64,000 nt of DNA, from NCBI GenBank assembly GCA_038093975.1, contig JBBPTG010000097.1:1-64000 (forward strand), given 5' to 3'. Each line of letters starts with the position of its first letter. Position 1 is the first letter of the stretch. Of the stretch, positions 2,561 to 60,564 are shown piece by piece. The notes beneath the pieces are model-generated. The model ran no database searches, was not told where the DNA came from, and worked only from the letters and a program-made list of their open reading frames with translations. The position numbers and the translations under genes are program-made. The stretch is from Chalciporus piperatus. Its lineage: Eukaryota; Basidiomycota; Agaricomycetes; Boletales; Boletaceae.

Positions 2561-2843
2561 CTCGTATTATACCACGGCATCAATTCAACGATTCTCTAGT
2601 GTCAACGAGGCGCTGATCCTCGGCATCACCGAGCAACGACATGCCACTGCCGCTTGCAGCTGTCTCTTAAAAATTCAAGTTTCTGATTGTTGACCTCGTC
2701 GACTTCGTCGATCTCGAACCTTCCAAAAAGCCTCGCGCTGTCGGTACTGCATTATCTTTACGCCCTAACAAGCGACTGATCACCGTTCGCTTCACGACTC
2801 CCCCCCCTCTCCCTCCGTCTTCCCGACCTCGCGACAATGCGGA
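2561..2843. other. Pyrimidine-rich spacer
   Basis: Non-coding in all frames. The right half is rich in C and T, including a run of eight C near 2802. It may be flanking sequence of the broken ligase copy that follows. No gene is supported. Confidence 0.3.
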
Positions 2844-3133
2844 TTGTCACAGAACCCTTTGTGGACTTCTCGACTCTCGTCCTTGGTCGCTTCCTCTGCC
2901 CGTTCTTCTACCGGATATTCAGGCTCTCTACGAGGCATCAATCAGGACGACGAGGACGACGGAGGTGAAGATCCCGATCTCGACGCTGCTCTTGCTGTGG
3001 CCCTAGCAATCAGGGCCGGAGAAAACTATCAAGAGAACATTTTGGATGAAAGTACAATCCGTGCCATCAGTCTTCTCCTTATGCCATCAGGAGGCTCGCC
3101 CTCGATTGCAACAACCGCGTACACGTTGCTTCT
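2844..3133 (+). pseudogene. Fragment of a UFD4-like HECT ligase (armadillo part), first copy
   Basis: The frame carries an acidic DDEDDGGEDPDLDAALAVAL stretch and then ILDESTIRAISLLLMPSGG. That second block is repeated almost exactly in the larger pseudogene at 4653-4756, where it reads LLDETAIRAINLLLMPSGG. At about 3133, after the codons for YTLLL, the coding sequence stops and copy 2 of the dispersed repeat begins. The fragment is therefore a duplicated armadillo-region exon of a UFD4/TRIP12-type ubiquitin ligase cut off by a repeat. The start ATG is only the first in the frame and is probably not biological. Confidence 0.6.
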
Positions 3134-3425
3134 CACATTCTACCTTGTCGGATCGTTGTCCACTTCTGCCAGATCGTTGTCCCCCTCTTTCTCATCACGT
3201 CCCATCCCTCTATAGGCAATCGACCCAAGGAACAACTGCTCAAAACTGTGCAACATCCTTGATTGTCCCAGACCGCCTCGACGCTACACGGACAGATGCA
3301 GCAACACTCCGAATTCCCATAACCAACGCTCCCGCGAGCCATCCCCTGTTTGACAGCACCTTCCCGCCCATCTTCTACAGCTCAGACTCAATGGCGCGCT
3401 GCAAGCCGACCGGAGTGTCTACCCT
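3134..3425 (+). repeat. Dispersed repeat family, copy 2
   Basis: It begins with cattctaccttg and two units of the minisatellite core ggatcgttgtcc. The shared acggacagatgcagca, gaattc and tttgacagcacc block follows, ending near atggcgcgctgcaagccg. The head abuts the broken ligase frame directly. Confidence 0.75.
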
Positions 3426-3589
3426 CGCTTAGTCGTGATATCACGTGACCTCTTTGTCGTTGGATGGATTGGCAGTACACCTTTGTTTCAAGGAAAAGGA
3501 TCGCAATCGTGTCAGCCAGCTTGCTTTATGCGCGGTCATATGCATGGTCGTTTTGAGCTCCATCCACTGCTTATCCTTTACCCACCACC

Positions 3590-6405
3590 ATGATTCCCCC
3601 ATCTCTCGAGAACAGCTTGAAGGTTCTGAATCGGCGGATCGCTCTGCAAAATCGAATCTATCCGATGGGTCAAGCTCTTCAGGCGGTGCGGCGTGTCCAA
3701 CGCTCGCCACCAACTCCGGGACTGCCCGACGGCGCCAGCGCGATAGGCTCCACGCCACCCCTTCACCCTGGTGGTGGAACACGCGTGCGAGACGAAACTC
3801 TCTCAGATAATCCGTCCCAACTGGATTGTGATGACATCCCAAACACGCCCACGCCTACCCGTATACCATTCGTATCCCGATTACCTGGCTCTGGTGGTCC
3901 AGAAGCCCTTCAGGACCCCCCATTGCCATTGGGTGAAGATGAGGTACTTCCCCCCGTGCCATACCCTTCCACGCCTCTCGATCAGAGTGCTGCCGTTGAC
4001 CATGACGCCACTCTGGTTGATGATCGTGATGTTGGCGCCCGTGTCCTGCCTCGCGCTGCAGGATGACAACACCCAACTGCCGATGTGCGACGGGTCCAGT
4101 CGTAAACGGCGGCGCTCTCTGACGCCAGAAGAGGAAGACATTGAGACTTCACCGATCGACAGACGACCACTCAAAACCCGTAAGAAAGCAATGCAAGGAA
4201 GCCGTGCAACTTCGTTGAGTGCATCATCGCATGCTCCTAGCCAGGATGCCTTCAGCAGTGAAGAAGAGATCGAGACCTTGATCTTGCCCATTAACAAGTC
4301 GACTGGCAAGCAGCGAGCGGTGCCCGATCAATATGGTATTTCTCCGTCCACCATTTTCGTAAATCACCTGTCCCTGACCACCGTCTCCCTTCAACAGAGA
4401 ACGACTCAAATAGAAAAATTACCCCCATTGCTACATATTCCATCCTCGATGTTGGAACTCCCGACTTTGCCGTGGACTCGAATGCCAACTCCATCACTGT
4501 GGATGGCCGCAAAAATGGAGCGGACCCGTGTCCACTTCCTGAGGGAGCCATGCAAGACGTGCAGAACGATACCATCAGCTCATCCTCCCACAAAGTCGAC
4601 CTCACTTCGGAGGAGCGCTCGTTGGTCCGCCGTGCATCCACCGAAAACCTTGAGAACCTTTTGGACGAAACTGCGATCCGTGCTATTAATCTTCTCCTTA
4701 TGCCATCGGGAGGCTCGCCCTCGATTGCAGCAAATACATACACGTTGCTTCTCAGGGCGCTGGCTACCGCAGCTCGCGCCAATCCTCGAATCACAATCAC
4801 ACTGTTGCAAGCGGACATTGTGGACACCCTGCACCAGATTCTCACTGGTGTATTACCCTCTGCATCTCCCCGAGATGGTCACAGGTCAGGGGCTTGGATG
4901 CGATGTTACGCATATGACAGTAATGGAGAACTTGGTACACCGCTCGAAAGATCAGGTGGAAGAGATGCTCAGTTTGGTGTCCGAGCTTATGCCACCTCTG
5001 CCTAAAGGTAAACATACTTCCTCTCTGCGCAGGACCCTACACTGACCATTTTTTAAGATGGTGTCTTCGATCACAAGAGTTACACAGACAAGGCATTAAC
5101 ACGCACGGTTAGGCCAAGGCCAAAGCCGATCGTTCTGCGGCTCGACAGGCTGCTGCAGCGGTGTCACACTCAGGAGTAGATACCAACCAAGAGTCAGACG
5201 CGCAGGGTCAAGACACGGATGAGGCTATGCCTCTTGTTTCCAACCCAGAACCCGTCAGTAGTTTCATCCATCCTCTCGCTATTGCAACTGATCGCTTTGG
5301 AACCCCAGCTCGTCCCAGTTGCAAGTTTTGCGTCATCTATTCTATCCTCTAAAGATCACCCGTCGCTGGTTATCGGAGCTCTTCAACTCGTTGTTCAACT
5401 CGTTGACCTTCTTTTACAAAAGTCCTGCGACGAGAGGGTGTCTTCCACGAGATCAACGAAATCGAAGCCACCGCTGCCAGAATGCTCTCCACGACAAAGT
5501 CGAAAGATAAGGATGCGTCGGAGCTTTCTGCTACAGGAGAGCCTGATGTGGTGGCCGTCCATCCCTCATCTACGACCGGTTACAAGAAGCATCATACACT
5601 GTCTCTGGAGCCCGAAGATTCCATCACGCTGCGCGCACGTATCATGCGGTTCAAGTACTCACTCGGGCAAGACGACACTAGCGGTAATGGCGATGGTTCG
5701 TTCGATGATCTTCGGCGCTTGGTGAAGAAGCTCTCGATATCCGAAACGTCTGAACAGACCATGGTCTCTACTCTGAGGGAATTTGCGGATCACCTTTCCT
5801 CGGAGGGTTCTGTTTCCAGTTTCGAACTCCTTCAGAGTGGAGCCGTCGAAGGACTGCTTCGCTTCGCAGGCCCAGGTGAGTCAAACCTCTATGGTGCATC
5901 ACTGTGCACTCAGATCGTGTAGTTCCTGTCAAGCGTCGCGAAGAGATTCCGTACGAGTCCTTCAGCCGGATGCCAAGAGGTGGACATTCGGGCCAATCTC
6001 CCCTTGCTATGTTGGTCAAGAAGTTGCAAGAAAGTCTAACAAGGATGGAGAACTTTGAGGTGATCACTATCGCGCAAGGGAGTGATGGTAACTCGACTCT
6101 TGTTATGCATATTCTGTCGCTAAACTCGATCATCTTTAGATTCAAAACGCAGCTCCCCATCCTTGCTCGCTCGTCAATTACGGCTCCGCTTGACCGCAGA
6201 CAACGACTCCGATATCCCACGCAATCTCCAGAATATGGTAGTCTCGATTCATGCCATTGCGACGTTCCAAGCCCTCAAAGACTACCTCCGCCCTCGTGTT
6301 TCCAGACTGATGGCCAGTGGCCGTTTGTCTAACATGCTCGCAGCATTGGCTGCGTCTGGCTTTGGCCCCGGGACGGCCTCTCGCACACACCCAGAACACG
6401 ACGCC
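3590..6405 (+). pseudogene. UFD4/TRIP12-like HECT E3 ubiquitin ligase, broken and truncated
   Basis: UFD4 ligases polyubiquitinate N-degron and ubiquitin-fusion substrates. The first exons still splice: 3590-4015, 4062-4335 and 4398 onward are in frame over introns of 46 and 62 nt. They encode a low-complexity head with the KRRR basic cluster, then armadillo-type sequence (TAARANPRITITLLQADIV). After that the frame is lost repeatedly: near 4870 (before the TVMENLVHR block), near 5130 (before KADRSARQAAAA), and around 5230-5440 (SFASSILSSKDHPSL and REGVFHEINEIEA lie in different frames). Later pieces (5482-5876, intron to about 5932, then LVKKLQESLTRMENFEV and LLTADNDSDIPRNL-like sequence to about 6402) follow the order of UFD4. 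The protein ends where repeat copy 3 begins, so the whole catalytic HECT domain is missing. The name is from remembered family sequence. Confidence 0.7.
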
Positions 6406-22500: not shown

Positions 22501-25500
22501 ACGTTGGTGATATCCGTGTTCAAGAACTGGTAAAGACTTGTGGCCCCTTGGTTGAGTTGCACGGTGTTGACGTAGTCGCTCAAGTCGTAAACGCCTCCGT
22601 CCCAAACAGCCCAAATCCTATCGGTCGATGGTGCTCAGTCAGATAGAGTGCGAGGCGGGTAAGGAAAAAAATACCTCTGGATGTTCTCGTCCATGGCCTG
22701 CGAATACACCTCGGATGCACTCCAGACGAGCGCACCCTTGCGATAGTTCTTGATCTTGGGCAGGAAAGTAGACGTATACCAGTCGGATTGATCGAGCAAA
22801 GTGTGCTGCGTCGGCTGCGTCACTCCCGACTTGTGCATGGCGGTTGGAACGATCGCAGTGAAGTTCTTTGGGGTCAATTCCAGCGAGGCCTGTGTGACCA
22901 ATGGAGCACATGCGAGGGCGAGCGGAGGGGGGAAATATTCAGTGAGCTCTTGCCCAACAAGCTGGCTGAGATCGGCGGCGGAGTTTGAGACAATGCCGAC
23001 CATGTCGCTGTGGTCCCCGTGGATGAAGTTCGAAAAGTCGTAGACCGATCCTTGGATCGAGACCCACCAATCCGTGTTCCCGGTATGCTGCGAGACCTCG
23101 TTCGAATCCCAAACTTTGTCAAAGTCGGGGCAGAGCAAGCGACCGAACTCGATGATGTAAAAAATGACGATGCCGTTCATGAGCAAAATCAGGAAGCAAA
23201 TGGTGACTTTCTCTCGCCATGCCAAGCGAACGTCGGGGCGTTTCATCCTTCCGATGTAGTGAAGAACGAAAGACGGGACGAGCCCCGTACACAACCAGAC
23301 GAGATAGAGCCACCATCGGCGAGAGCGACTTGTCGGGACTTCTTCGACCGCAGTGGGTGCCGCGTTGACTCGGATATTACCTTCCTTCGATGGATACGCA
23401 GGTGAACCACCGGGGGTGCCTCCTTTCTTATCCCATTCCGACCCCCAACCATCCTCGTTGTCGGTGTACGCAGGTGCCTGAAGGCCAGGAGAAGCCAGTC
23501 CGCTGACGCCGTACGGCATGTGTTGGTTGGGATCCTGGTACTTCGATCCATGACTGCCAACGCGTGCGATCAACAGATTATCACGACTCTCGTTATCGAG
23601 CATGTCGGGGCCGTGAACGTCCGTGTGGGTGTACTCCGTAGCGTCGTCCGCTATAGCGCTCCCGTCGTCATCAAGCTCAAGTCTCCTCTGCTCCTTCTCA
23701 TCAGCCCGCACAACATCCTCGACCGTCTTCCATGCCTGATAGGACAACCAGATCGAACGATGCCCGAGGACAAAGTCCGAACCCTCCTTCCATCCGTTTG
23801 AAGCCGCGCATTGCCGGATGCGCTCCACGCTGGAACCACGCATCGTCGGCACATACCGTTCGCAAAATTTGCTTTGCTCGAAGTCGGTGACATATTCGAT
23901 GCTGCGTCGTGCGACAATTTCAGGGATGAGGAGAGACTTGACCTGTGCCTTGACACGCCGTTTGTCAAAGGAGTTGGGTGAGTTTGAATCGTTTGGACGG
24001 ATGCAGGAGATGGTCCAAAGATGCGCGCGGTCAAAGGAAGCGAAGATTTCTGAGAGGGTGTGATTGAGTTGAGTAGAGACGGCGTGTATCTTCGAGGGGT
24101 CGAGGGGCGGATGTTCTTCGAAACTATTCGTTGCTGTGATAGGCGTTGGCTGACGCAGAGGACGGGAAGAAACTTGCGCTTGTACGATAATGGCGTTGTC
24201 CTGAGAATGTTTCTCGGCAGCAAGGGAAGGACCTGATACCAGCTTCGCCACGAAGCCATCCGACGAGTGGCGGAGTAGCGATACGAACGCCGAATCGAGG
24301 ATATCCGAGTCCTTCTCGATAAAGGACGCAATGTTGTACGAACAGCTTCCCGCATAATGATTGATGCCGAATAACTTCCTGTCGCCCGCGCCTCCTTGAC
24401 TGGGGCTTGCCACAAACGAGGGGTGAACGCCGTATTTCGACACAAGTTCTTGATGAAGCTCGTCAGCTTTCTTGTCACCCGCCTTCCCTGATCTGTACCA
24501 CGAGCATGCTTTGCTTAGCATGCCGAGCATACCTCCCGGTTTGCGAGTAGCCCGCTCGCTCAACTGAGCACCACGGATGAGCTCGACGCATGCCGAATTA
24601 TCCACAGTTGCGATCGCAGGAAGTGAGATCCCATCACCGGCGATGTGACCGTTGTATCCAATAGCATCCTCGAATGTGTTGCGCAGGACGTAAGACTGCA
24701 CGAACTCGTCCGCGAAGTTGATGCAAAATTCATCAAAACCGTTTTGACCGAAGCCGGAGAGAAGGGGCGCGGTTCCGGTAAGCATCATTGAGCCGGTACC
24801 CGTCGGGCCACGGCTCTGGAAACCGGGCTGGTCAAAGAGAATCATCTGCGTGGAGGGCAGGATATCACGGTTTGCGGGAGCGATCTTGTGATTCGATGTC
24901 TCGACAACGTAAGCAAAAAGGATAGCATACAGATCGCGCATGAGCGAGTCGCGCTGCATCGCACTCTGCTCGATATTAAGGAGGGAGGTGTAGAGTTCCT
25001 TGCGGACGTAGTTGGTCTTGTTCGTCAGCGTCTGCGCAAGTTCCTCGGACGGAACACCGAGGAGACGTGCGACCTGTTCGAGGACGGGAAAATTCGCGAC
25101 AGACGCTGAAACGTCTTTGGCATCTGCTTCGACGAATTGAATCTTGCTGAGGAGCAGGATGGTAACAAGGAGGGTGAATATAGATGTAAGGTGCTTCGGC
25201 TTGAAGCCAAGAGTGTGCATGGCAACTCTGACTTCCTCCATAGCAATCGCGTCATCGCTAAATGGGCCGTTTGGCAAACGATAGCACCCCGATGATGCGA
25301 GTAGCGGATACTCTGACGGGTCATCGAGCTTGAAAAAGTCTCGCTCTTGAGGAGCCGCACCAGACAAAAACTGGTAGAATATATGGAACGTACGTTCCTC
25401 GTGGGCAAGGCGTGTCAGCCTCGATTTATCGAGTGCGAAGGCGAGAACTTTGGCGGACTCTATGCGGCCGCGCTCGTTGAAATGGAGTTCGAGATATTGG

Positions 25501-26103
25501 CTATGTCGCGATGCGTTCGGGTTCGAGGCGGTCTTTGCGTTTCCAAACGCGTCGAGGAGGGTGTGGAGAGCTTTGATCTGGCTCGCCATCTTAAGCTCCT
25601 TCTTCGAGTGGGCTGAGAGGCGGAGGACCTGGTCTACGAGGAGACGTAAACTGGACGTCTTGCCCGAGCCAGTGATACCTCTAAGCAATAATAAGCGTTA
25701 GAACTCATCAAGACGTTTATGTACACTGGACGAACCGCGTGACGACAGATTGAGACTGTTTTCGGCGGCGCATGAGCAGATAAATTTGAGCGGCAAGTTC
25801 GTAAAGATGAGGTTGGAGGAGTCTCGAGCTCGCAATGGACATTCCAGTGTCCTTGTAGCACCGTTCTTCATACTCCTTTGCGCTGATATCGTTAACGTTT
25901 GCGAGGGTCTTGTAGGGGTTGACGACAAGGAAGTTTGCAGTGCCGATTCTCGAGTACGGTAAATCTGAGCGGAAACGGGTGTTGAGGAGGGCAACGATGG
26001 CGTCGTCGGAAGGGTAGACGGTGGCGGACTGGGAGGTGGAAACGAGGTCGACAAGGTCGCCGGTGTTGGCGGCGGGCGAAGAGAGAGAGCCGCTCGAGGC
26101 CAT
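19567..26103 (-). CDS. Chitin synthase with myosin-like motor (class V type)
   Basis: It polymerises UDP-GlcNAc into chitin at the plasma membrane of growing tips and septa. Twelve exons: 26103-25736, 25680-22675, 22617-22289, 22246-21882, 21823-21604, 21542-20980, 20918-20895, 20841-20752, 20699-20635, 20581-20415, 20360-19724, 19669-19567. Introns are 42-61 nt, giving 1,978 residues in frame. Residues about 1-780 are a myosin motor with P-loop [10 protein letters not shown] (124-133). Membrane segments follow near 915-970, then a cytochrome b5-like domain ([20 protein letters not shown]). The glycosyltransferase core from about 1120 has [13 protein letters not shown] and QRRRWIN, the catalytic signatures, and is followed by C-terminal membrane spans. 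A glycine/methionine-rich linker leads to a DEK_C domain ([14 protein letters not shown]). Exon 7 is only 24 nt. All key motifs are present, so it should be active. Confidence 0.95.
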
Positions 26104-36195: not shown

Positions 36196-36991
36196 GGGTG
36201 GATGTGAATGTGAATTGTGATGTTTGGATAGTGCTGCAAAAGTGCAACACAGTCTGGACTGGGTGATGGTGGATTTTTGAGGGGAGAGAAACGTCATGCG
36301 AAGGCAGGTTCGTTCGCTTATGTAATAAACATGTGGATGATATGATATACTGTAAGAATTACCCTGCACCAGTTCTGTGTCGTTTCGTACGAATCCCTTA
36401 GCGGATGGTGAGGAGGGGCCCGGACCGGCTCGTTCCGGCGCCCGGTACTGCATGGACGCGATACAAATGCCGACGGAAGTCCCGAAAGGGTTTCCCTCTG
36501 CTCCGATGGCCTGTGGGAGCATACCTTTTTATAGGTCCCTGCTGGTTTTTGCTGATCGAAAGTCTCTCTTTCCCCACTCGCCATACCCCACACATATGAT
36601 ACCAGCCTCTCGGTGGGTCGTGCATACGCTGTCGCAATCTGTCGTCCCTGCCTACTCCCCCTGAGTCCCCTGATGAGAGCTTTCGCAGGCTCGAAACCGC
36701 TGCTCACCCGCCCCCTTCCCTGCCTCTGTGCATACTGTACATGGCCATGATCTTTGGAGAATGGTGTCTGACGGATGCAACATGCAGTTTCGACAGCCCA
36801 GGTACCTCTCCCTCACACACAGACATAGAACTGGGAGGCTCGCTTCGCTCACCTCCCCAGTTCTCCCCACTCTGCAGACTTGCAACACAGCAAGTCATCT
36901 GGTCAACTTGAATGTACTTGCCGTTTGTTGGGCTAGTTGACCTGACAAAAGTCGCAACAAGTCAACCCAATCCGACCATAAATCCTGGAGA
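36196..36991. other. Intergenic, 3' flank of the WW gene
   Basis: No supported gene. It contains a hairpin at 36828-36863: gaactgggagg pairs with cctccccagttc, one extra C. Confidence 0.5.
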
Positions 36992-37443
36992 TTGCTGATG
37001 CTGCAAGAAGGCTTTGACTCTGTGCAGCAGTTCGACTTCCACTGCGTAAAACGCGGAACGAGTCGCCCCATTGGCAGGAAGTCCCGCAAGAGCTGTTACC
37101 CTCCCGTAGCAGACGAAGTCGACGAGGACGAGTACAACGACGAGCCTGACGTCGAGATGTCTAGCTACCTCTCTCAGCTTGAATTCCGCACCGCATCTTC
37201 CTCCTCGTCTTATTACTTCCGGTCGGACAGCCAGGACCAACGCGACGTCTTCCCCGTTTCCTCGTGCTCATACAACAACCCCATGGAGAACGTGTCTGTC
37301 CACGAGCCAAGGTGGGTTTCGTGCTACCGCTTCTCACATTACGTCGTTTCTTACGTCGCTCCTTGTTGCAGCCACTGCCCATTCAAGGTAGCTGGAACCT
37401 GGTTCCGCGACAACTGTGTCTCGTACCCTATTTTGACGACAAC
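36992..37443 (+). pseudogene. 5' part of an unknown gene broken by the TIR element
   Basis: An open frame from 36992 reads as an acidic, serine-rich protein (PPVADEVDEDEYNDEPDVEM, ASSSSSYYFRSDSQDQRDVF). A GT-AG intron (donor at about 37291, acceptor ending at 37370) would join it in phase 0 to QGSWNLVPRQLCLVPYFDDN at 37371-37443. Exactly here the 1,655-bp element begins. Beyond the element, one copy of the 7-bp target sequence being counted, the same frame continues at 39106. Not recognised as any family. The internal splice choice is tentative. Confidence 0.4.
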
Positions 37444-39098
37444 TAGGGAATGCAATTCTCCCACCTCGTATCGGACGCAAGGTCACGTGACACCGAGTCG
37501 GTTCGGTGTCATGTGACTTTGTTGATTGCCAGACATCAGTACATCAGTGTCCGACTGTGTCCGAGCCTCCGACCAGCCACCAGCCACCGCCCATCAGTCG
37601 TTCGAACGAAGACAGCGACCACACATACTCACCAGAGACCCCACCAAGCCACCAGATCAAAAATACTCGTTGACGAAACCGATCGACGAGTGAAATGCGT
37701 CGGAACGACGCTGAAAGCGCGTCCAGCCGCCATGAAACACGACCAGACGAGTCGTCAATGCCATCCGACGAAGGTGATGAAATTGCGAGCGAGATCAAGG
37801 GTGTAGAGGGCGCGTGGTAGGTGTCGAAAGCTACAATGCGAGAGAAGACCCCAAGCGAGACGGAATCATACGAGGAGGTCGAAGAAGTGGTGGGCGACAG
37901 GGCTGGGGCCGGGAGAGTCGATGACATCCGACGTAGCAATCGCGACCACGGCCGACGCCCACAATGGGCAATTATTCGAATCAGGTTGAGCGGAGATGTC
38001 CACAGACGAGACTGCTGCGACAACCACAGCAAATGTGTCCGTTGACGCAAATGCGAACGAAGACTCGCCTAACAATCCCCAGAGCGTGCCGCTCAAGGGG
38101 AAACCGCGGATGACGACGACGACACACGGAGTTGTTCGCGCATGCTAGACAAGCACGCTGCACAAGTCGAACGACGCTGAAAGCACACCCAGCCGCGAAG
38201 AAACACGGCGGAAAGAGCCTTTCGACGGGCGTGTGGTGGAGTTGGGGTTGTCGAGAGTCAAAACGATCGTGTCGAGCGATCCCGAAGTTGTACAGGTCGA
38301 GGGCAAAACCAATTGCAAACGAGCGGGAAGCACCGCCCGCGCCCGCAGATACACGGAGATCGTCGAGGAGGACGCTGGGAGGCTCACAGACAAGCTGGAT
38401 GAATGGGAGAACGATGAAACACGCTGACATGTGTCGATCAAGGGCGTTGAGGTCAGTCGAGCGATCGATGTCGAGGGACGAAGACCATGGTCAGTACGAC
38501 GCGACGAACGAAGACGACGCACCTGCATAGTCCCAATGAACGAACCCCAAACCCGAACGAGCGAGTGCGACGACGACGAAGAGTCGAATGCGCGGTGTGA
38601 TCGCACAGGCGCACGAACGGAGCCGTGCGGCCGTGAGCTCGCCAGGTCGACGAAAAACGAGATGTCGAGAGACAGGGGAGTTGCAGAGCGGTGAAAATGA
38701 TGCCGAACGCGACCGTGACGCAACGCAACGAGCAACGCCGATAGCGACTCACAACGAGTCGAAACGAAGACGCTAGGAGCGGACGAAGAAACGCGTCAGA
38801 ACCAGCACTACACGCGCAGGTTCATCAAAGACTCACCTAGGCCGTCACCATCACCATATCCCCATCACGCCAGACGACCCATTGAACCCACGAATCGCGC
38901 GGATGGATGCCCATACTTTCATGTGTAGTCTCAGCAGTATTATACCTCATATTACTGAAGTACTATATACCCGAATACAATATCTTCAGCAACACTCCTA
39001 GCCCTGACTCTCAAGCTCACTCCTCCACACACGAGACGAACTGGTTCGGTGTCACGTGACCTTGCGTCCGATACGAGGTGGGAGAATAGCATTCCCTA
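37444..39098. mobile_element. 1,655-bp non-autonomous DNA transposon with 53-bp TIRs
   Basis: 37444-37496 and 39046-39098 are inverted copies of each other over 53 bp with one mismatch, starting tagggaatgc and containing the palindrome ggtcacgtgacacc. Both ends are flanked by the same 7 bp, cgacaac (37437-37443 and 39099-39105), a target-site duplication. Just inside the left repeat a 15-16-bp near-perfect copy of its inner end lies inverted (37502-37517). The interior is rich in cgacga-type words and includes a degenerate internal duplication (about 37700-37745 and 38166-38212). It shows no transposase motif in any frame. A 7-bp duplication fits neither typical hAT (8) nor Mutator (9) exactly, so the superfamily is left open. 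Confidence 0.85.
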
Positions 39099-39306
39099 CG
39101 ACAACTACCATGGTTACAACGACAGTTGTCGAGCTCAAGTCCCTGAGTCGCTGACCTTCGCTGTGCCTCGACCTCAATCATGGAATGCAGCACCGGGCTA
39201 TAACTGTACAAGTTTCCAGCCAGGTCTTTGCGCAGCTGGTTCTGTAGGTTCTCCGCATTGGGTAGACACATGGGTGTTGAGTGGCACGAGCACAGCGTGG
39301 GCTTAG
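39099..39306 (+). pseudogene. 3' part of the gene broken by the TIR element
   Basis: From the second target-site copy, a frame reads NYHGYNDSCRAQVPESLTF, then QSWNAAPGYNCTSFQPGLC, and stops at 39306. It is in phase with the left part when the element and one 7-bp copy are removed. The cysteine/asparagine/tyrosine-rich content suggests a secreted or structural protein, but I recognise no family. Confidence 0.4.
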
Positions 39307-39613
39307 GGTACAAGGGACGGAGTTAAACATCGAATGGGATGGACGTAAACTATTCTACGACGTTCCCCCAAGCTCTTGCGAGGGAACTTAAGATACTGAT
39401 AGCCACTAACTTAAATCGTACTCGGGCTTGCGAGACACCAACTTCTTTGTAAGCTCGAAAAGGAGATATCAAGGCTGTCGAAACAAATATCACACTGATC
39501 TATCACGTCCACAGAACATCGCACGCAAAAATACTGCGCACGAAATATTGTACACAAATTATCGTACACTCCTGAGCTTTGGTACAGTAGGTGAGCGACA
39601 TGTAATGGGCCAC
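39307..39613. other. Intergenic
   Basis: Nothing supported; 3' flanks of the two neighbouring genes face each other here. Confidence 0.4.
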
Positions 39614-40593
39614 CTAGGCGTCCAGGGGACGGAATTTGAGCTCCGTGATAACGATGTATTCATAGCGCGGGGGCCAGATGGCCCTGTCGAGTGGGTTTGA
39701 GGTGGTCCTAAAGCCCACGGTCTCCGACGCACCCTCCTCTTCGTCCTCATCGGAAGTAGTCAGTCCATTGGAGACCATGGGTCGGGAGTAGCGAAAGGCC
39801 AGCAGGGTGTAGATGTGCTTGGTGGGTTGCTCCTGGCAGTAAGGGTCGATTAAGAGGCCATCCTTGATCCACGCGGCAGCGAATTGAGAACTGCACGATA
39901 GGAAAAATGAAAACAAACGATGAACAAGAAAGTATGTAAAAGGAAGTAGAGCACGAACATTGCATCGCGGCAACCGAATCTTGCAAGCCCCACCTGCCGG
40001 AAGTAGAACGGTTCCATGTGGCGAGATTGAACAGAGTGGAAGAGTTGGCCGAAAGTGGTACCGGGTGCGAGAGCGAAAGAGCGACTGAAACGACCGAGCA
40101 TAGAGGGCGTGTTGCGAGGACGAACAGCGATCTGGAAGGAGCCAGGGACACGGATGCCCATGGAAGGCTGCTCACCGATGGTAGACAATTCAACAGCAGG
40201 CTTGATGATGCTACTAAGGTCGTCGAACTTGGCACCAGAATCACTACCGAGGCTCCGAATGGAAATGGCGCCAGGACCGCTGCTGTCGGAGTCGAAAGGC
40301 CGGTCGCTGCTGCGAGCGTACTGGGCTTGGTTGGAGGGAACACTCGGAGTTTCTGTCAGGCTGAACCCGAACTGGATTTGTACGGGGGCAAGTGGGTCTG
40401 GCCCTTGGACACGCAAGCGCCACACCCAATGATTCTTGATAAGCCCCATTTCCTCGGCCTGGCGCTCAGTGAGCCCAGTCCCACCCTTGGGGCCCATGCT
40501 GAGGACATCGACATTGATGCTGTCGTCGAGACTGACCAGCTGGAGGACGTCATCAGGAACGTCAGAAGAAGTATAGTCGGCGTTGAAAGGCAT
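39614..40593 (-). CDS. Unknown protein, two coding exons
   Basis: 40593-39959 and 39890-39614 with a 68-nt GT-AG intron give 303 residues. Not recognised. The sequence is soluble, without signal peptide or membrane span. The N-terminus has DDVLQLVSLDDSINVDVLSM and NHWVWRLRVQG. The middle is serine-rich. The second exon reads FAAAWIKDGLLIDPYCQEQ, IYTLLAFRYSRPMV and an acidic SDEDEEE stretch, and ends in EYIVITELKFRPLDA. The ATG directly follows a perfect acceptor (ctacgcag), and a strong donor (gtaagt) lies at 40662. A 69-nt intron (40594-40662) therefore probably interrupts the 5' untranslated leader. A TATA-like box lies further upstream. Expressed-gene architecture, unknown role. Confidence 0.6.
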
Positions 40594-47504: not shown

Positions 47505-50072
47505 CTAGAAGAGAGTGCTGCTTGCTGCTCCGTCGCCATTATTAATCCATATGGTCGGTCGAGATTCGTTCAAACTATCCCAAGAAGCAAAGCAATGCAC
47601 GTTCTCTTGCAACGCGCTCGCCTCCACCTTGACGCCATGACTGCACACATAATACGAGTTAAGCCCAATCCTGGTACGATGACGGAGAAAAAAAGCGCGC
47701 AAATACTCACACGTCGTCAAGATGGACAGGCAACGATGGATTAGTATGCCAGTGGGTTGTAAGATTGTATTTCGTCGCGTCAGCACGGCGCTGACACAAC
47801 GCGCAAAAAACTTGATAAGTTTTCCCAGTGCGATCGATGGCTTGCTCCTCGGTCTCAACCATGGGGATGAGTGTCTCGTCAAAAAGCGTCCATAAATTGC
47901 CTTCCCAAGACGAGTGACGGGCGGAGTTGGCGTGAAAGATCTGTTTCACGCAATAATCAACAATCAAGCTCCCGCCGTATTAAGGTGTCTGAGATCTCGA
48001 AAGGCTTACCGCTGTTTTCCACTTGTAAACCTCGACATGTGTGGACGGGTACCGACAGGTGCGACATGCGTTGCAGATTAAACGAGCATTCACTTGGTCC
48101 ATGTCCTCCACCGTAGCGGTTCGCGGGTCCAAACCACATGCGCGAATTACATCCTGAGCACCGGTGAACAGCGTTATAAAGTCCCACCCTTCCGGAAAGA
48201 GTGTCCACGGTGGATTAGGCCGCGAATAGGAATGGTCACGACTGTCATAGAAGACAGACAACTCCGTAAGAACACGGAGATAAGGGAATACATAGCGTTG
48301 ATCGTTGAAAGGGTGTTCGACCACGAAGACTGCACAAGCTAGCTGGAAGGGGTCCTTTGGCGATGGATCTCCCCCCCTTGGGCGTGTTCGAGTAGGCTTC
48401 TTCTTCGAAGAAAGTGCCACCGGGTCCGCATAAACGTTGACCAAGGATGCAAGTCGTGCATCGATGTCTTTCCTCCATTGCCTCGCTAGGGCAGGCAACT
48501 GATCAAATGCTGGCCGGAATGTCGTCTCGTCCACTGTTTCATCCTCAGGAAGATTGAGGACTGCATCAAATGGCGCAAAGTGGGCCAGGTCCGAGATAGA
48601 AGGGAGCACATCTACGGCTCCACCTTCTGGTGCTGGACGTTGGATGTAGCGATTGTAAAGAGTGAGCAGCAGGCTGCGCCGTGGATAGTGTACCGTCTCA
48701 TCTATCATGTGCTTTCTGAATTCACTCAACTTCGACCGCAGTCTTGAATGCACTGCTTCCCAGTCTACCAGTAAAGGTCTCAGACCATGCGCGCGGGCGA
48801 GATAGAAAAAGATACCTTTCTCAGTGAGGGGCTTTGACGAGCGAAAAGCGTCAGGACATAAATCCATGAAGCGTTGTTGGCCCCAGTATTGGATCTCACG
48901 TCCATATCCAGCAGATTTCAGTCGAGCAAAGATACTGCAGAAACCGTCATATAGATAAACCTGCATGAAACTCAAAGCTCCTACCTATCATATCTTGCCG
49001 TTCTTGCTTCGGCCAACTCGTCTTTCCGATCGGCAACCACTTGCTCGTGCCAATCCTCGCATTGTTCGGCGTGCTGGGATGGTGAGATACAAAAGCCCTG
49101 ATAGGATGACATGAATTTACCTCTTCAATCTGAGCAACTATTGCATGTCGTCGTGCGATATATTCATCCCTCTCGGCAGGAAGAATTTGGGCGTATTCCT
49201 TGCAAAGTGCCTCATACTGCTTCAAATCTGCATAGTCATTCGCGTTTTCTTGAAAACGATATCCTAGAAAACATTACTGAGTGCAGGAGCAATCAAACAT
49301 TGGAGGGATACACACTTTCTGCTGATAGTAAACGCTCTGAAGGTAACATACGTCGAGAGGGGAGACCATCACAACAAGAGAGTTCAAGCAACCTAAAGTA
49401 TCGTGAATGAAATTGTTGCTAAATCAGCAACGGAGGTAGACCCAGAAGCGTACCGTTCGTCTCGACATTCTGAGCAATACCGCCGTCGTATATTCCAGTA
49501 TATCGTTCGCGAGATCCTGCCGCAAATCTTTGTAGGTTGCGTCACAACTAGATCGAGAAAAAAATGACACAGAAGCTTACGTGACAATGTGGATCAAATG
49601 CGAGGTTGGCATACTCTGGCTCGCTCAAGTCGGGAGGAAGGTCAGGAAATCCGGGCATTCGTTTCCGAGCGGCTATCCAGATAAATGCGTGCGACTTTGA
49701 CATGAGGAATTGACGGAACTGTTTCGTCATACGAGCCAAGGTGAGAAGGTCCCTGGGAGGCAAGTAGCTCAGGATCTGTTGGTCCTTCGTCAGTATATCA
49801 TCGAATCAAAAGCAGACGAGGCTTCGAACCTGTGACAGAACGTCAAGGTTCGTCTCTGGGAGCATCGATAGTTTGCCACGCTGGGTCGGTAGTTTTGAGG
49901 TTCCTTTCTGCGGACCACTCTTAGTACGAGGCTTAGCCCGAGCACGCTTTGAAGGCTTTTGCGCCGGTGCATCGCGTTCTGTGGCCTGAGTGGGTATGGC
50001 ATCAATGAGGAGGTTAGAATCTTTTTCACTTCAAAGCTGTACCTTCTTCGTGGCAGAGCGTGTTTGAACCAT
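47505..50072 (-). CDS. Large F-box/zinc-cluster protein, copy A (intact)
   Basis: Eleven exons: 50072-50043, 49985-49830, 49775-49581, 49527-49454, 49392-49352, 49263-49121, 49073-48985, 48934-48816, 48752-48010, 47940-47711, 47640-47505, giving 651 residues in frame. Introns are GT-AG, 47-88 nt. A basic N-terminus (KPSKRARAKPRTKSGPQKG) precedes the F-box at about 63-105 (ILSYLPPRDLLTLARMTKQF). Then come DLSEPEYANLAFDPHCHIC and YCSEC, a probable zinc-binding set. Near the C-terminus are CNACRTC and, at about 576, CALCQ followed by histidines. This matches a mushroom-specific family of about 600-residue F-box proteins; partners are unknown, and an SCF role is inferred from the F-box. It lies in the left arm of the palindrome; copies B and C are described below. 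Confidence 0.75.
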
Positions 50073-58038: not shown

Positions 58039-60564
58039 ATGGTTCAAACGCGCTCTGCCGCGAAGAAGAAGGTACAACTCTGACGTGAAAGGTCTTCCAA
58101 TAGCCTCATTGATGCTATACTCACTCAGGAACTCACTGTCGCCACAGAACGCGATGCACCGGCACAACAGCCTGAGGCTAAGCCTCGTACTAAACGTGGT
58201 CCGCAGAAAGGAACCTCAAGACGAACGACCAAGCGTGGCAAACTATCGATGCTCCCAGAGACGAACCTTGACGTTCTGTCACAGGTTCGAAGCCTCATCC
58301 CTGCTTTTGAGTCGATGATATACTGACGAAGGACCAACAGATCCTGAGCTACTTGCATCCCATGGACCTTCTCAACTTGGCTCGTTTGACGAAACAGTTC
58401 CGCCAATTCCTCATGTCAAAGTCGCACGCGTTTATCTGGGTGGCCGCTCGGAAACAAGTGCCCGGATTTCCTGACCGTCCTCCCGACTTGAGCGAGCCAG
58501 AGTATGCCAACCTTGCATTCGATCCACATTGTCACGTAATGTTCTGTGTCATTTTTTTTCTCGATCTGGTTGTTGACGCACCCTCCAAAGAGTTGCGGCA
58601 GGGTTTCGGAAAAGATATACTGGAGGATGCGACGGCGGTGTTGCTCGGAGTGTTGGGACAAACAGTACGCTTCTCAGCTACCTGATTTAGCCACAATTTC
58701 GTTCACAATACTTTAGGTTGGTTGAATTGCATCAATGTGATGGTCTCCCCTTTCGACGTATGTTACTTTTGGAGCGTTTACCATGGCCGAAAGGTGTGTG
58801 CCCCCCAATGTTGATTGGTTCTGCCCTCAAAATATTGTCTAGAAGCATGGGAGTGCTTTGTAGATTCGCAACAGTATGACACATTTCGCAAGGAATACGC
58901 CCAAATTCTTCCTGCCGAGAAGGATGAATATGTAGCGCGGCGACATGAAATCGTGGCTCAGATTGAAGAGGTAAATTCAGGTTATCCTCTCAGGGCTTTT
59001 GTATCTTACCATCCTAGCATGCCAAACAATGCGGGAAGTGGCACGACCAAGTGGTTGCCGCTCGGAATCAGGAGTTGGCCCGAGCAAGAACGGCAAGAAA
59101 TGATAGGTAGGAGCTTCGAATTTCATGCAGTTTTAACTATATGACGGTTTCCGCAGCATCTTTGCTCGACTAGAATCTGTTGGATATGGACGTGAGATCA
59201 AATACTGGGGCCAACAACGCATCATGGACTCATGTTCCGACCTTTTTCGCTCCTCGAAGTGCCTCACTGAGAAAGGTATACATTTCTGTCATGCCTGCGT
59301 GGACATGGTCTGAGATGTTTACTGGTAGACTGGGCACAAGTACATTCAAAACTGCAGCCGAAGTTGAGGAAATTCAGAGAGGACAGGATAAAAGTGGTGG
59401 TAGACTATCCACGGCGCAGCCTGCTGCTCACCCTTTACAATCGTTACACCCAACATCCAGCACCAGAAGGTGGAGCTGTAGATGTGCTCCCTGCTATCTC
59501 GGACCTGGTCCACTTTGCGCCATTTGACGCGGTGCTCAATCTTCCTGAAGATGAAACAGTGGACGAGACGACATTCCAGCCAGCATTTGATCAGTTGCCT
59601 GCCCTAGCGAGGCAATGGAGGAAAGACATCGATGCACGACTTGCATCCTTGGTCAACTTCGATGCGGAGTCGGACTCGGCACCTTCTTCGCGGAAGAAGC
59701 CTACTCAAACGCGCCCGAGGGGGGAAGATACGTCTCCAAAGGACCCCTTCAAACTAGCTTGTGCAGTCTTCGTGGCGAAACTTCCCTCCAACGATCGATG
59801 CCACGTATTCACTCATCCCCATGTTCTTATGGAGCTGTCTGTCTTCTCTCACAGTCTTCACGATTTCTGTCCAGTGTTGTACAATCAACCACAGATACTG
59901 TTTCCGGAAGGGTCGAACTTTATAACGCTGTTCACTGGTGCTCAAGATGTAGTTCGCGCATGTGGTTTGGACCCGCGAACTGCCACGGTGGAAGACATGG
60001 ACCGCCTGAATGCTCGTTTAATCTGCAACGCATGTCGCTATCAACGGATTTTCAAGTGGAAATCAGCGGTAAGCCTTTTGAGATCGCAGACACCTTTATA
60101 CGGCGAGAACTTAATTGTTGATTATTGCGTGAAACAGATCTTTCACGCCAACTACACCTATCACTCATCTGGGGGAAGCGATTTATGGACGCTTCTTGAC
60201 AAGAATCTCGTCCCCGTGGTTGAGGCCGAGGAGAAAGCTTGCGATCAACCTTATCAAGGTTATTGCGCGTTGTGTCAGCACCGTGCTGACGCCCCGAAAT
60301 ACCATCTTTCAACCCATGCTCCGTCATCTTTAGGTTGGTTGTCGGACCATCTCGACAAAGTGTGAGTATTTTCGCGCTTTTTTTCTCCATCATCGTACCA
60401 GGGTTGGGCTTACCTCGTATCGTGTGTGCAGTCATGGTGTCAAGGTGGAGACGAGCGCGTTGCAAGAGAACGTGCATTACATTGCTTCTTGGGATGGTGC
60501 GACCGATTTCAAACCGATCATATGGACTAATGGCAACAGAGGAGGAAGAAGCAGGCTCGTTTAG
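58039..60564 (+). CDS. Large F-box/zinc-cluster protein, copy B (intact)
   Basis: The exons correspond one to one with copy A: 58039-58071, 58129-58284, 58341-58535, 58591-58664, 58717-58757, 58843-58970, 59018-59106, 59157-59275, 59341-60068, 60138-60361, 60432-60564, giving 639 residues in frame. Exons 2, 3, 4, 5, 7 and 8 have exactly the same length as in copy A. Exons 1, 6, 9, 10 and 11 differ only by multiples of three, the pattern of selection on protein. F-box: ILSYLHPMDLLNLARLTKQF. Cysteines: PHCHSCGR and CCSEC. C-terminal CALCQHRADAPKYHLSTHA. The acceptor of intron 3 must be the aaag before agttgc, because the ctag used-looking site of copies A and C is ctgg here. It is head-to-tail behind the PLC gene. 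Confidence 0.75.

What the first reader, a model, noticed from the sequence alone, without database searches (positions are those of the whole stretch)
37437..39105. Complete 1,655-bp TIR transposon with 53-bp ends and 7-bp target duplication
Seen directly: two 53-bp inverted ends with a single mismatch, perfectly bounded by cgacaac on both sides. Near-identity of the ends suggests recent activity. There is no transposase, so it must be moved by an enzyme encoded elsewhere. A 7-bp target duplication is uncommon among well-known fungal superfamilies, so the family may be undescribed.
Basis: seen in the sequence. Interest (0 to 1): 0.8.

Follow-up and report, generated by a model that had tools for sequence, protein, structure and literature searches.

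The report
Non-autonomous Mutator-like transposon in a mushroom
A 1.65-kb piece of mobile DNA that carries no enzyme of its own sits here in what looks like a mushroom-type fungus; it is one of about ten nearly identical copies, and a longer relative with the same ends and a Mutator-type transposase gene elsewhere in the same genome very probably moves it.

Summary
The transposon is real, but its edges and target duplication need correcting. It is 1,653 bp (37445-39097, AGGGAATGC...GCATTCCCT) with 61-bp terminal inverted repeats (TIRs) and a 9-bp target duplication, ACGACAACT (37436-37444 / 39098-39106). Ten near-identical copies (at most 4 substitutions between any two) were found at 9 sites, with duplications of 9 bp (5 sites), 10 bp (3) or 11 bp (1). 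For 4 of the 9 sites, not the window's own, the assembly also holds an uninterrupted version with exactly one target copy. The "longer relative carrying a transposase" was found: C18:260919-264559, 3,641 bp, same ends, with a predicted 6-exon, 1,017-aa transposase (Pfam MULE 49 bits; conserved D/D/E; SWIM-like motif; database relatives, best about 50% identical, in many mushroom fungi). The element is therefore a recently active, non-autonomous Mutator-like element (MULE): a new family of a well-known superfamily. Slightly unusual: its interior is not a deletion derivative of the longer element; parts resemble interiors of other repeat families in this genome that have unrelated ends.

The parts
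37436..37444 (.). left copy of the 9-bp target site duplication ACGACAACT
37445..37505 (+). left terminal inverted repeat, 61 bp, 4 mismatches to the right one (1 mismatch in the outer 52)
   Evidence: no variable column here among the 10 copies
37445..37526 (+). left end shared with the transposase-bearing element C18 (90% over 88 columns, 6 gaps)
37478..37521 (.). inverted repeat CAAGGTCACGTGACACCGA / TCGGTGTCATGTGACTTTG, predicted to form a hairpin, inside and next to the left end
   Evidence: (I3)
37527..38925 (.). interior without a recognisable gene and without collinear similarity to the C18 element; parts weakly similar to the interiors of other repeat families
38926..39097 (-). right end shared with the transposase-bearing element C18 (92% over 174 columns, 4 gaps); in C18 it starts after 5 bases that follow the predicted transposase stop codon
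39037..39097 (-). right terminal inverted repeat, 61 bp
39098..39106 (.). right copy of the 9-bp target site duplication ACGACAACT
37445..39097 (.). whole element, 1,653 bp: non-autonomous Mutator-like element

Best explanation
A non-autonomous Mutator-like element (MULE) of a fungus that is probably an agaricomycete (mushroom-type). A transposase made by a longer element with the same ends (one complete copy in the assembly, C18:260919-264559) most likely binds the 61-bp ends, excises the DNA and inserts it with a staggered cut that duplicates 9-11 bp of target. Shown here: the ends, the target duplications, the number and near-identity of the copies, the uninterrupted sites, and a matching-ended element with an apparently intact MULE transposase gene. 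Inferred: that this transposase acts on these ends in trans, that the element moves by cut-and-paste, and that it is still active.
For: Own-genome search: 8 copies of the full 1,653 bp plus one of 1,635 bp and one of 1,355 bp (counts are lower bounds). Nine distinct sites, target duplications of 9 (5 sites), 10 (3) and 11 bp (1); at most 4 substitutions between any two copies. All 24 matches to the 25-bp terminal pattern are without mismatch although 3 were allowed, and the reversed-pattern control gave 0. Uninterrupted versions with one target copy for 4 of 9 sites; at two of them 600 of 600 flanking bases are identical. Longer element C18: same ends, predicted gene of 6 exons, 1,017 aa, no stop inside the spliced frame, PF10551 MULE 49 bits against a cut-off of 27.6; the only match over that cut-off in the own-genome search. 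D336, D403/D405, E671 and C759xC761...C772xH774 are invariant in the query and the 14 of its 84 database relatives that I aligned. Published MULE duplications are 8-11 bp (PMC6446971, passages); Muta1 transposase moves non-autonomous elements in trans with 8-9-bp duplications (PMC5225508, passages).
Against: Only about 82 bp on the left and 172 bp on the right are shared with C18, so trans-mobilisation is inferred from the ends alone. The C18 copy has no target duplication of its own: its left flank (GACAAGGAA) pairs with the right flank of the C21 fragment, so the assembled C18 copy is a rearrangement or a misjoin. The uninterrupted sites can be alleles, duplicated sequence or precise excisions; two of the four (C153, C124) have further uninterrupted, less similar matches, so they lie at least partly in repeated sequence. 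The exon structure is my prediction, without transcript data.
Confidence: 0.93

Rival explanations
1. A new superfamily of TIR transposon with 7-bp target duplications.
For: cgacaac does flank the T...A-ended version perfectly.
Against: The copies agree on AGGG...CCCT as ends and have 9-11-bp duplications; the related longer element encodes a MULE transposase; four uninterrupted sites hold one 9-11-bp target copy.
Confidence: 0.01
2. A hAT-type element (ends beginning TAGGG and an 8-bp duplication would suit hAT; recalled, from no call).
For: The window copy alone could be read as TAGGG...CCCTA.
Against: The T/A is not part of the element; none of 9 sites has an 8-bp duplication; the partner transposase matches MULE, and no hAT family appears among its three Pfam matches.
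Confidence: 0.01
3. A non-autonomous MULE whose real driver is another element, not the C18 copy, for example an unassembled one or one lost from this strain; C18 is only the nearest relative.
For: Only the ends are shared with C18; the C18 copy is rearranged or misassembled and the other two copies found are incomplete.
Against: C18 holds the only match over the Pfam MULE cut-off in the own-genome search, its predicted gene is open, and its right 61-bp end is 98% identical to the window's left end.
Confidence: 0.15
4. A Pack-MULE in the strict sense: the interior is a captured host gene fragment.
For: The interior is unrelated to the C18 element and parts of it resemble sequence elsewhere in the genome.
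Against: Of the related loci, the two families that I traced to their ends are multi-copy repeats; no Pfam match over cut-off; substitutions fall equally on the three codon positions in the one frame tested (48/236, 48/235, 52/237); the related 388-aa ORF has one database match, E 2.1e-8, covering 21% of it.
Confidence: 0.08

Closest known systems
Mutator-like elements (MULE superfamily)
   Same: Long TIRs, 9-11-bp target duplications, partner transposase with PF10551, D/D/E and a SWIM-like motif, copies without a transposase.
   Different: The family itself matched nothing named here; it was not placed in a published MULE clade.
Hop1 / VdMULE of ascomycetes (PMC3441728, passages)
   Same: Fungal MULEs of about 3.4-3.6 kb with 73-86-bp TIRs and terminal consensus GGNAA (here AGGGAA, one base further in); VdMULE1 has an 8-bp duplication.
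   Different: Different host phylum; sequence relation to Hop or VdMULE was not tested.
Non-autonomous MULEs of the mushroom Marasmius oreades (PMC8290104, passages)
   Same: Mushroom fungus with widespread putative non-autonomous MULEs whose autonomous partner was sought with the same Pfam profile.
   Different: No sequences compared; the passages I saw give no detail of those families.
Muta1 and its non-autonomous derivatives, Aedes aegypti (PMC5225508, passages)
   Same: One transposase moves non-autonomous elements with shared ends and interiors of diverse origin; duplications of 8 or 9 bp with no sequence preference.
   Different: Insect; experimentally active in yeast; sequence not compared.

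Membership tests
Mutator-like element (MULE), non-autonomous | target site duplication of 8-11 bp | tested here: met
   9, 10 or 11 bp at 9 of 9 sites; single copy at the 4 uninterrupted sites read; range from PMC6446971. The C18 copy itself has none.
Mutator-like element (MULE), non-autonomous | long terminal inverted repeats | tested here: met
   61 bp, 4 mismatches
Mutator-like element (MULE), non-autonomous | ends shared with an element that encodes a MULE transposase | tested here: met
   C18 ends, PF10551 49 bits, candidate DDE and SWIM-like residues invariant in 15 aligned sequences; the Pfam SWIM family itself stayed below its cut-off
Mutator-like element (MULE), non-autonomous | no transposase of its own | tested here: met
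   none of 22 ORFs of 60 aa or more has a Pfam match over cut-off
Mutator-like element (MULE), non-autonomous | mobilised in trans by the partner transposase | not testable with these tools
   needs an excision or insertion assay
Pack-MULE (captured host gene fragment) | interior derived from an identifiable host gene outside transposons | tested here: inconclusive
   relatives traced to their ends are multi-copy repeats; no Pfam match, no codon-position signal; not every related locus was traced
Deletion derivative of the autonomous element | interior collinear with the autonomous element | tested here: not met
   only element positions 1-82 and 1482-1653 align collinearly to C18
hAT | 8-bp target duplication (recalled) | tested here: not met
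   0 of 9 sites
Hop clade of MULEs | transposase groups with Hop in a tree | not tested
   no Hop sequence was fetched or aligned

The most novel reading that the evidence does not exclude
The interior is a travelling module shared by transposon families with unrelated ends in this genome: these MULE ends, a TAGTCTCGG-ended family with apparent 9-bp duplications, and a CATCAGGAAAAA-ended family with apparent 2-bp duplications. Non-autonomous elements of different superfamilies would then be exchanging interiors, or repeatedly picking up the same old repeat.
Probability: 0.25. Interest if true: 0.5.

Novelty: new member of a known kind. Interest (0 to 1): 0.33.

Why it matters
It gives a clean two-part Mutator system in what looks like a mushroom-type fungus: one complete transposase-bearing copy, about ten near-identical dependants and uninterrupted sites within one assembly. 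That is good material for testing trans-mobilisation and for marker or mutagenesis tools, in a group for which my three word searches turned up few papers. It does not change the picture of transposon superfamilies. The shared interior is the part that could be more than routine.

Tried and rejected
Rejected: the 7-bp duplication and a new superfamily; hAT; the element as a deletion derivative of C18; the interior as a recognisable gene; an Rfam RNA in or near the element (0 matches at gathering cut-offs in window 36900-39700).

Led nowhere: the species could not be named; the chitin-synthase-type ORF at 22635-25697 has its best relatives (about 80%) in unnamed assemblies (120 of 220 hits listed). 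The search for the words Mutator-like, Agaricomycetes and transposon together found 0 papers. I did not predict a structure, because the family assignment did not need it. L044 and L045 were fetched and not analysed.

Results against my reading: the C18 copy lacks a target duplication of its own. No uninterrupted version of the window's own site was found, nor of C282, C151 and C80; for C390 there are only two short matches across the junction, 81% over 63 bases. C153 has two more partial matches across its junction (C73 and C475, 97-98%) and C124 two at 78% (C51, C4), so these sites lie partly in repeated sequence. The C52 uninterrupted match stops 127 bases into the right flank. C58 and C212 hold the same insertion (99.96% over 2,678 bp), so they count as one site. 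Reading the C18 gene without splicing shows one TAG and one TAA in one matched stretch and one TAA in another; by the exon borders I place them in predicted introns.

Full report
What was checked. Searching the window's own assembly (G000, 35.5 Mb, 484 contigs, unnamed) with 37437-39105 gave eight copies of the full length, one of 1,635 bp and one of 1,355 bp (40 of 61 candidates scored, so a lower bound). Apart from the window itself, the near-full-length matches start at query position 6-9 and end at 1661-1662; laid side by side, all ten copies run AGGGAATGC...GCATTCCCT and differ just outside. With the ends moved in by one base, the window copy is flanked by ACGACAACT on both sides, 9 bp.

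Target duplications. Ten copies stand at nine distinct sites (C58 and C212 carry the same insertion). The longest identical flanks are 9 bp at C97 (window), C282, C151, C212/C58 and C52; 10 bp at C390, C80 and C153; 11 bp at C124. I saw no common sequence among them, but did not test this. In 500 bases on either side no two copies share sequence at E <= 1e-3 except C212 and C58. Random 9-mers from the window matched 7 times in 1,000,000 draws.

Age. Any two copies differ by at most 4 substitutions; over the alignment there are eight substituted columns besides one 18-bp deletion (C52) and one 298-bp deletion (C124). Of the terminal 25-bp pattern, allowing 3 mismatches, the assembly has 24 matches and all have none; the reversed control has no match. 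They are the two ends of the ten copies, the two ends of C18, and one end each of C21 and C280. A further partial left end (C12:318349-318424) lacks the outer 6 bp.

Uninterrupted sites. The flanks of nine sites were joined with one target copy and searched in the same assembly (40 of 49 candidates scored). Four sites have an uninterrupted version elsewhere, each with an exact 40-bp core: C212/C58 at C438 and C153 at C160 (each 600 of 600 flanking bases identical), C124 at C8 (93.8% over 633 columns because of one 33-base gap and 6 mismatches), and C52 at C102 (98% over 427 columns, the match ending 127 bases into the right flank). C153 and C124 have further, less similar matches across the junction (97-98% over part, and 78%). 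For C390 only two short 81% matches of 63 bases cross the junction. The window's site, C282, C151 and C80 have none. Such versions can be alleles, duplicated regions or precise excisions; I cannot tell these apart.

The transposase-bearing relative. C18:260919-264559 is 3,641 bp with the same ends; two further pieces lie at C280 (positions 1-1525, 97%) and C21 (positions 2645-3641, 99.6%). At both broken places the neighbouring sequences are relatives of each other (95% over 537 bases) and begin or end like a TG...CA long terminal repeat, so a retrotransposon of one family has probably inserted in each. In C18 I predicted six exons with introns of 44-58 bp and GT/AG borders, giving 1,017 aa without a stop. 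Pfam finds MULE (PF10551, 49 bits, cut-off 27.6) and, just over its cut-off, the RNase H-like domain of ZSWIM1-3 (PF21056); the SWIM family itself stayed below its cut-off. C18 is the only match over the MULE cut-off in the own-genome search; a second place, C270, stays below it. A database search with residues 280-900 gave 84 proteins at E <= 0.001 among 7,990 scored candidates, best identities about 50%; where the source named a species it is, by my recall of taxonomy, a basidiomycete, nearly always an agaricomycete. That, and the named relatives of a chitin-synthase-type ORF in the window, is my ground for calling the host a mushroom-type fungus. In an alignment of the query with 14 of those 84, D336, D403, D405, E671, C759, C761, C772 and H774 are invariant: the expected catalytic triad and a CxC...CxH motif like SWIM. 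Assigning these residues to the triad is my reading.

A rearranged copy. The C18 element has GACAAGGAA on its left and GCTGAGTAG on its right, so no duplication. The right end of the C21 fragment is followed by GACAAGGAA. A paralogous uninterrupted site at C21:190315-190534 shows the C18 left flank and the C21 right flank side by side (88% over 426 columns). One insertion has thus been split between two contigs, by recombination between copies or by misassembly. In another repeat family of this assembly two copies share a 30-base left flank but not the right one (L021 and L024), and two have each other's 2-bp flanks, so misassembly in repeats is quite possible.

The interior. Only the first 82 and last 172 bp are shared collinearly with C18. 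The right shared part starts after 5 bases that follow the predicted stop codon of the transposase gene. Between them lies other sequence. Element positions of about 721-1445 align collinearly, with many gaps (79% over 708 ungapped columns; score 102 against at most 6 in 30 shuffles), to the middle of a family with CATCAGGAAAAA ends; positions 270-326 also match that family, but that stretch is an internal near-duplicate of the later part. Positions 159-367 and 493-656 match a family with TAGTCTCGG ends at 67-71%. In the one frame tested, codon positions differ equally (48/236, 48/235, 52/237), and Pfam finds nothing over its cut-offs in 22 of 22 ORFs, so I see no sign that it is or was a gene in that frame.

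How it most likely works. As in other MULEs, the partner's transposase should recognise the long ends, cut the element out and insert it with a 9-11-bp stagger. Muta1 of Aedes does this in yeast for elements with shared ends and interiors of diverse origin (PMC5225508, passages). Here that step is inferred.

Comparison with print. MULE duplications are 8-11 bp and Basidiomycota appear in a sub-group of the Hop clade (PMC6446971, passages). Fungal MULEs of 3.4-3.6 kb are described in Verticillium (PMC3441728, passages), and putative non-autonomous MULEs in the mushroom Marasmius oreades (PMC8290104, passages). Pack-TIR definitions were seen in PMC8277862 (passages). This is a new family of a known kind.

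Noticed in passing
L015-L024 (C232, C3, C26, C17, C62, C317, C1, C253, C129, C46): A family (ten loci read) of about 2.9-4.0 kb with CATCAGGAAAAA...TTTTTCCTGATG ends (one variant base in one copy). Of 9 copies with both ends, 5 have identical 2-bp flanks, and C253 and C129 look like each other's with flanks swapped. Possibly CACTA-like (recalled, not tested).
   Followed up: partly
L028, L050, L051, L052 (C15, C78, C111, C312): A family with TAGTCTCGG...CCGAGACTA ends (one mismatch in one copy) and identical 9-bp flanks in 2 of the 3 copies whose both ends were read; parts of its interior resemble the window element's.
   Followed up: partly
L011 around 676 (C21:108095) and L013 around 533 (C280:6055): Both broken relatives of the C18 element stop at related sequence (95% over 537 bases) that ends or starts like a TG...CA long terminal repeat, so one retrotransposon family probably inserted into each.
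   Followed up: partly
L027 1485-1630 (C112) and L014 (C12:318349-318424): Partial relatives of the left end; C112 joins 25 bp of the TIR to the window element's subterminal sequence with extra bases between them.
   Followed up: partly
window 22635-25697, minus strand: Long ORF related to fungal chitin synthases with a myosin motor; best relatives about 80% identical in unnamed assemblies.
   Followed up: partly
window 47980-48984 (minus) and 59271-60365 (plus): Two long ORFs that share long near-identical stretches (for example YPRRSLLLTLYNRY), so the window holds two diverged copies of some gene or repeat.
   Followed up: no
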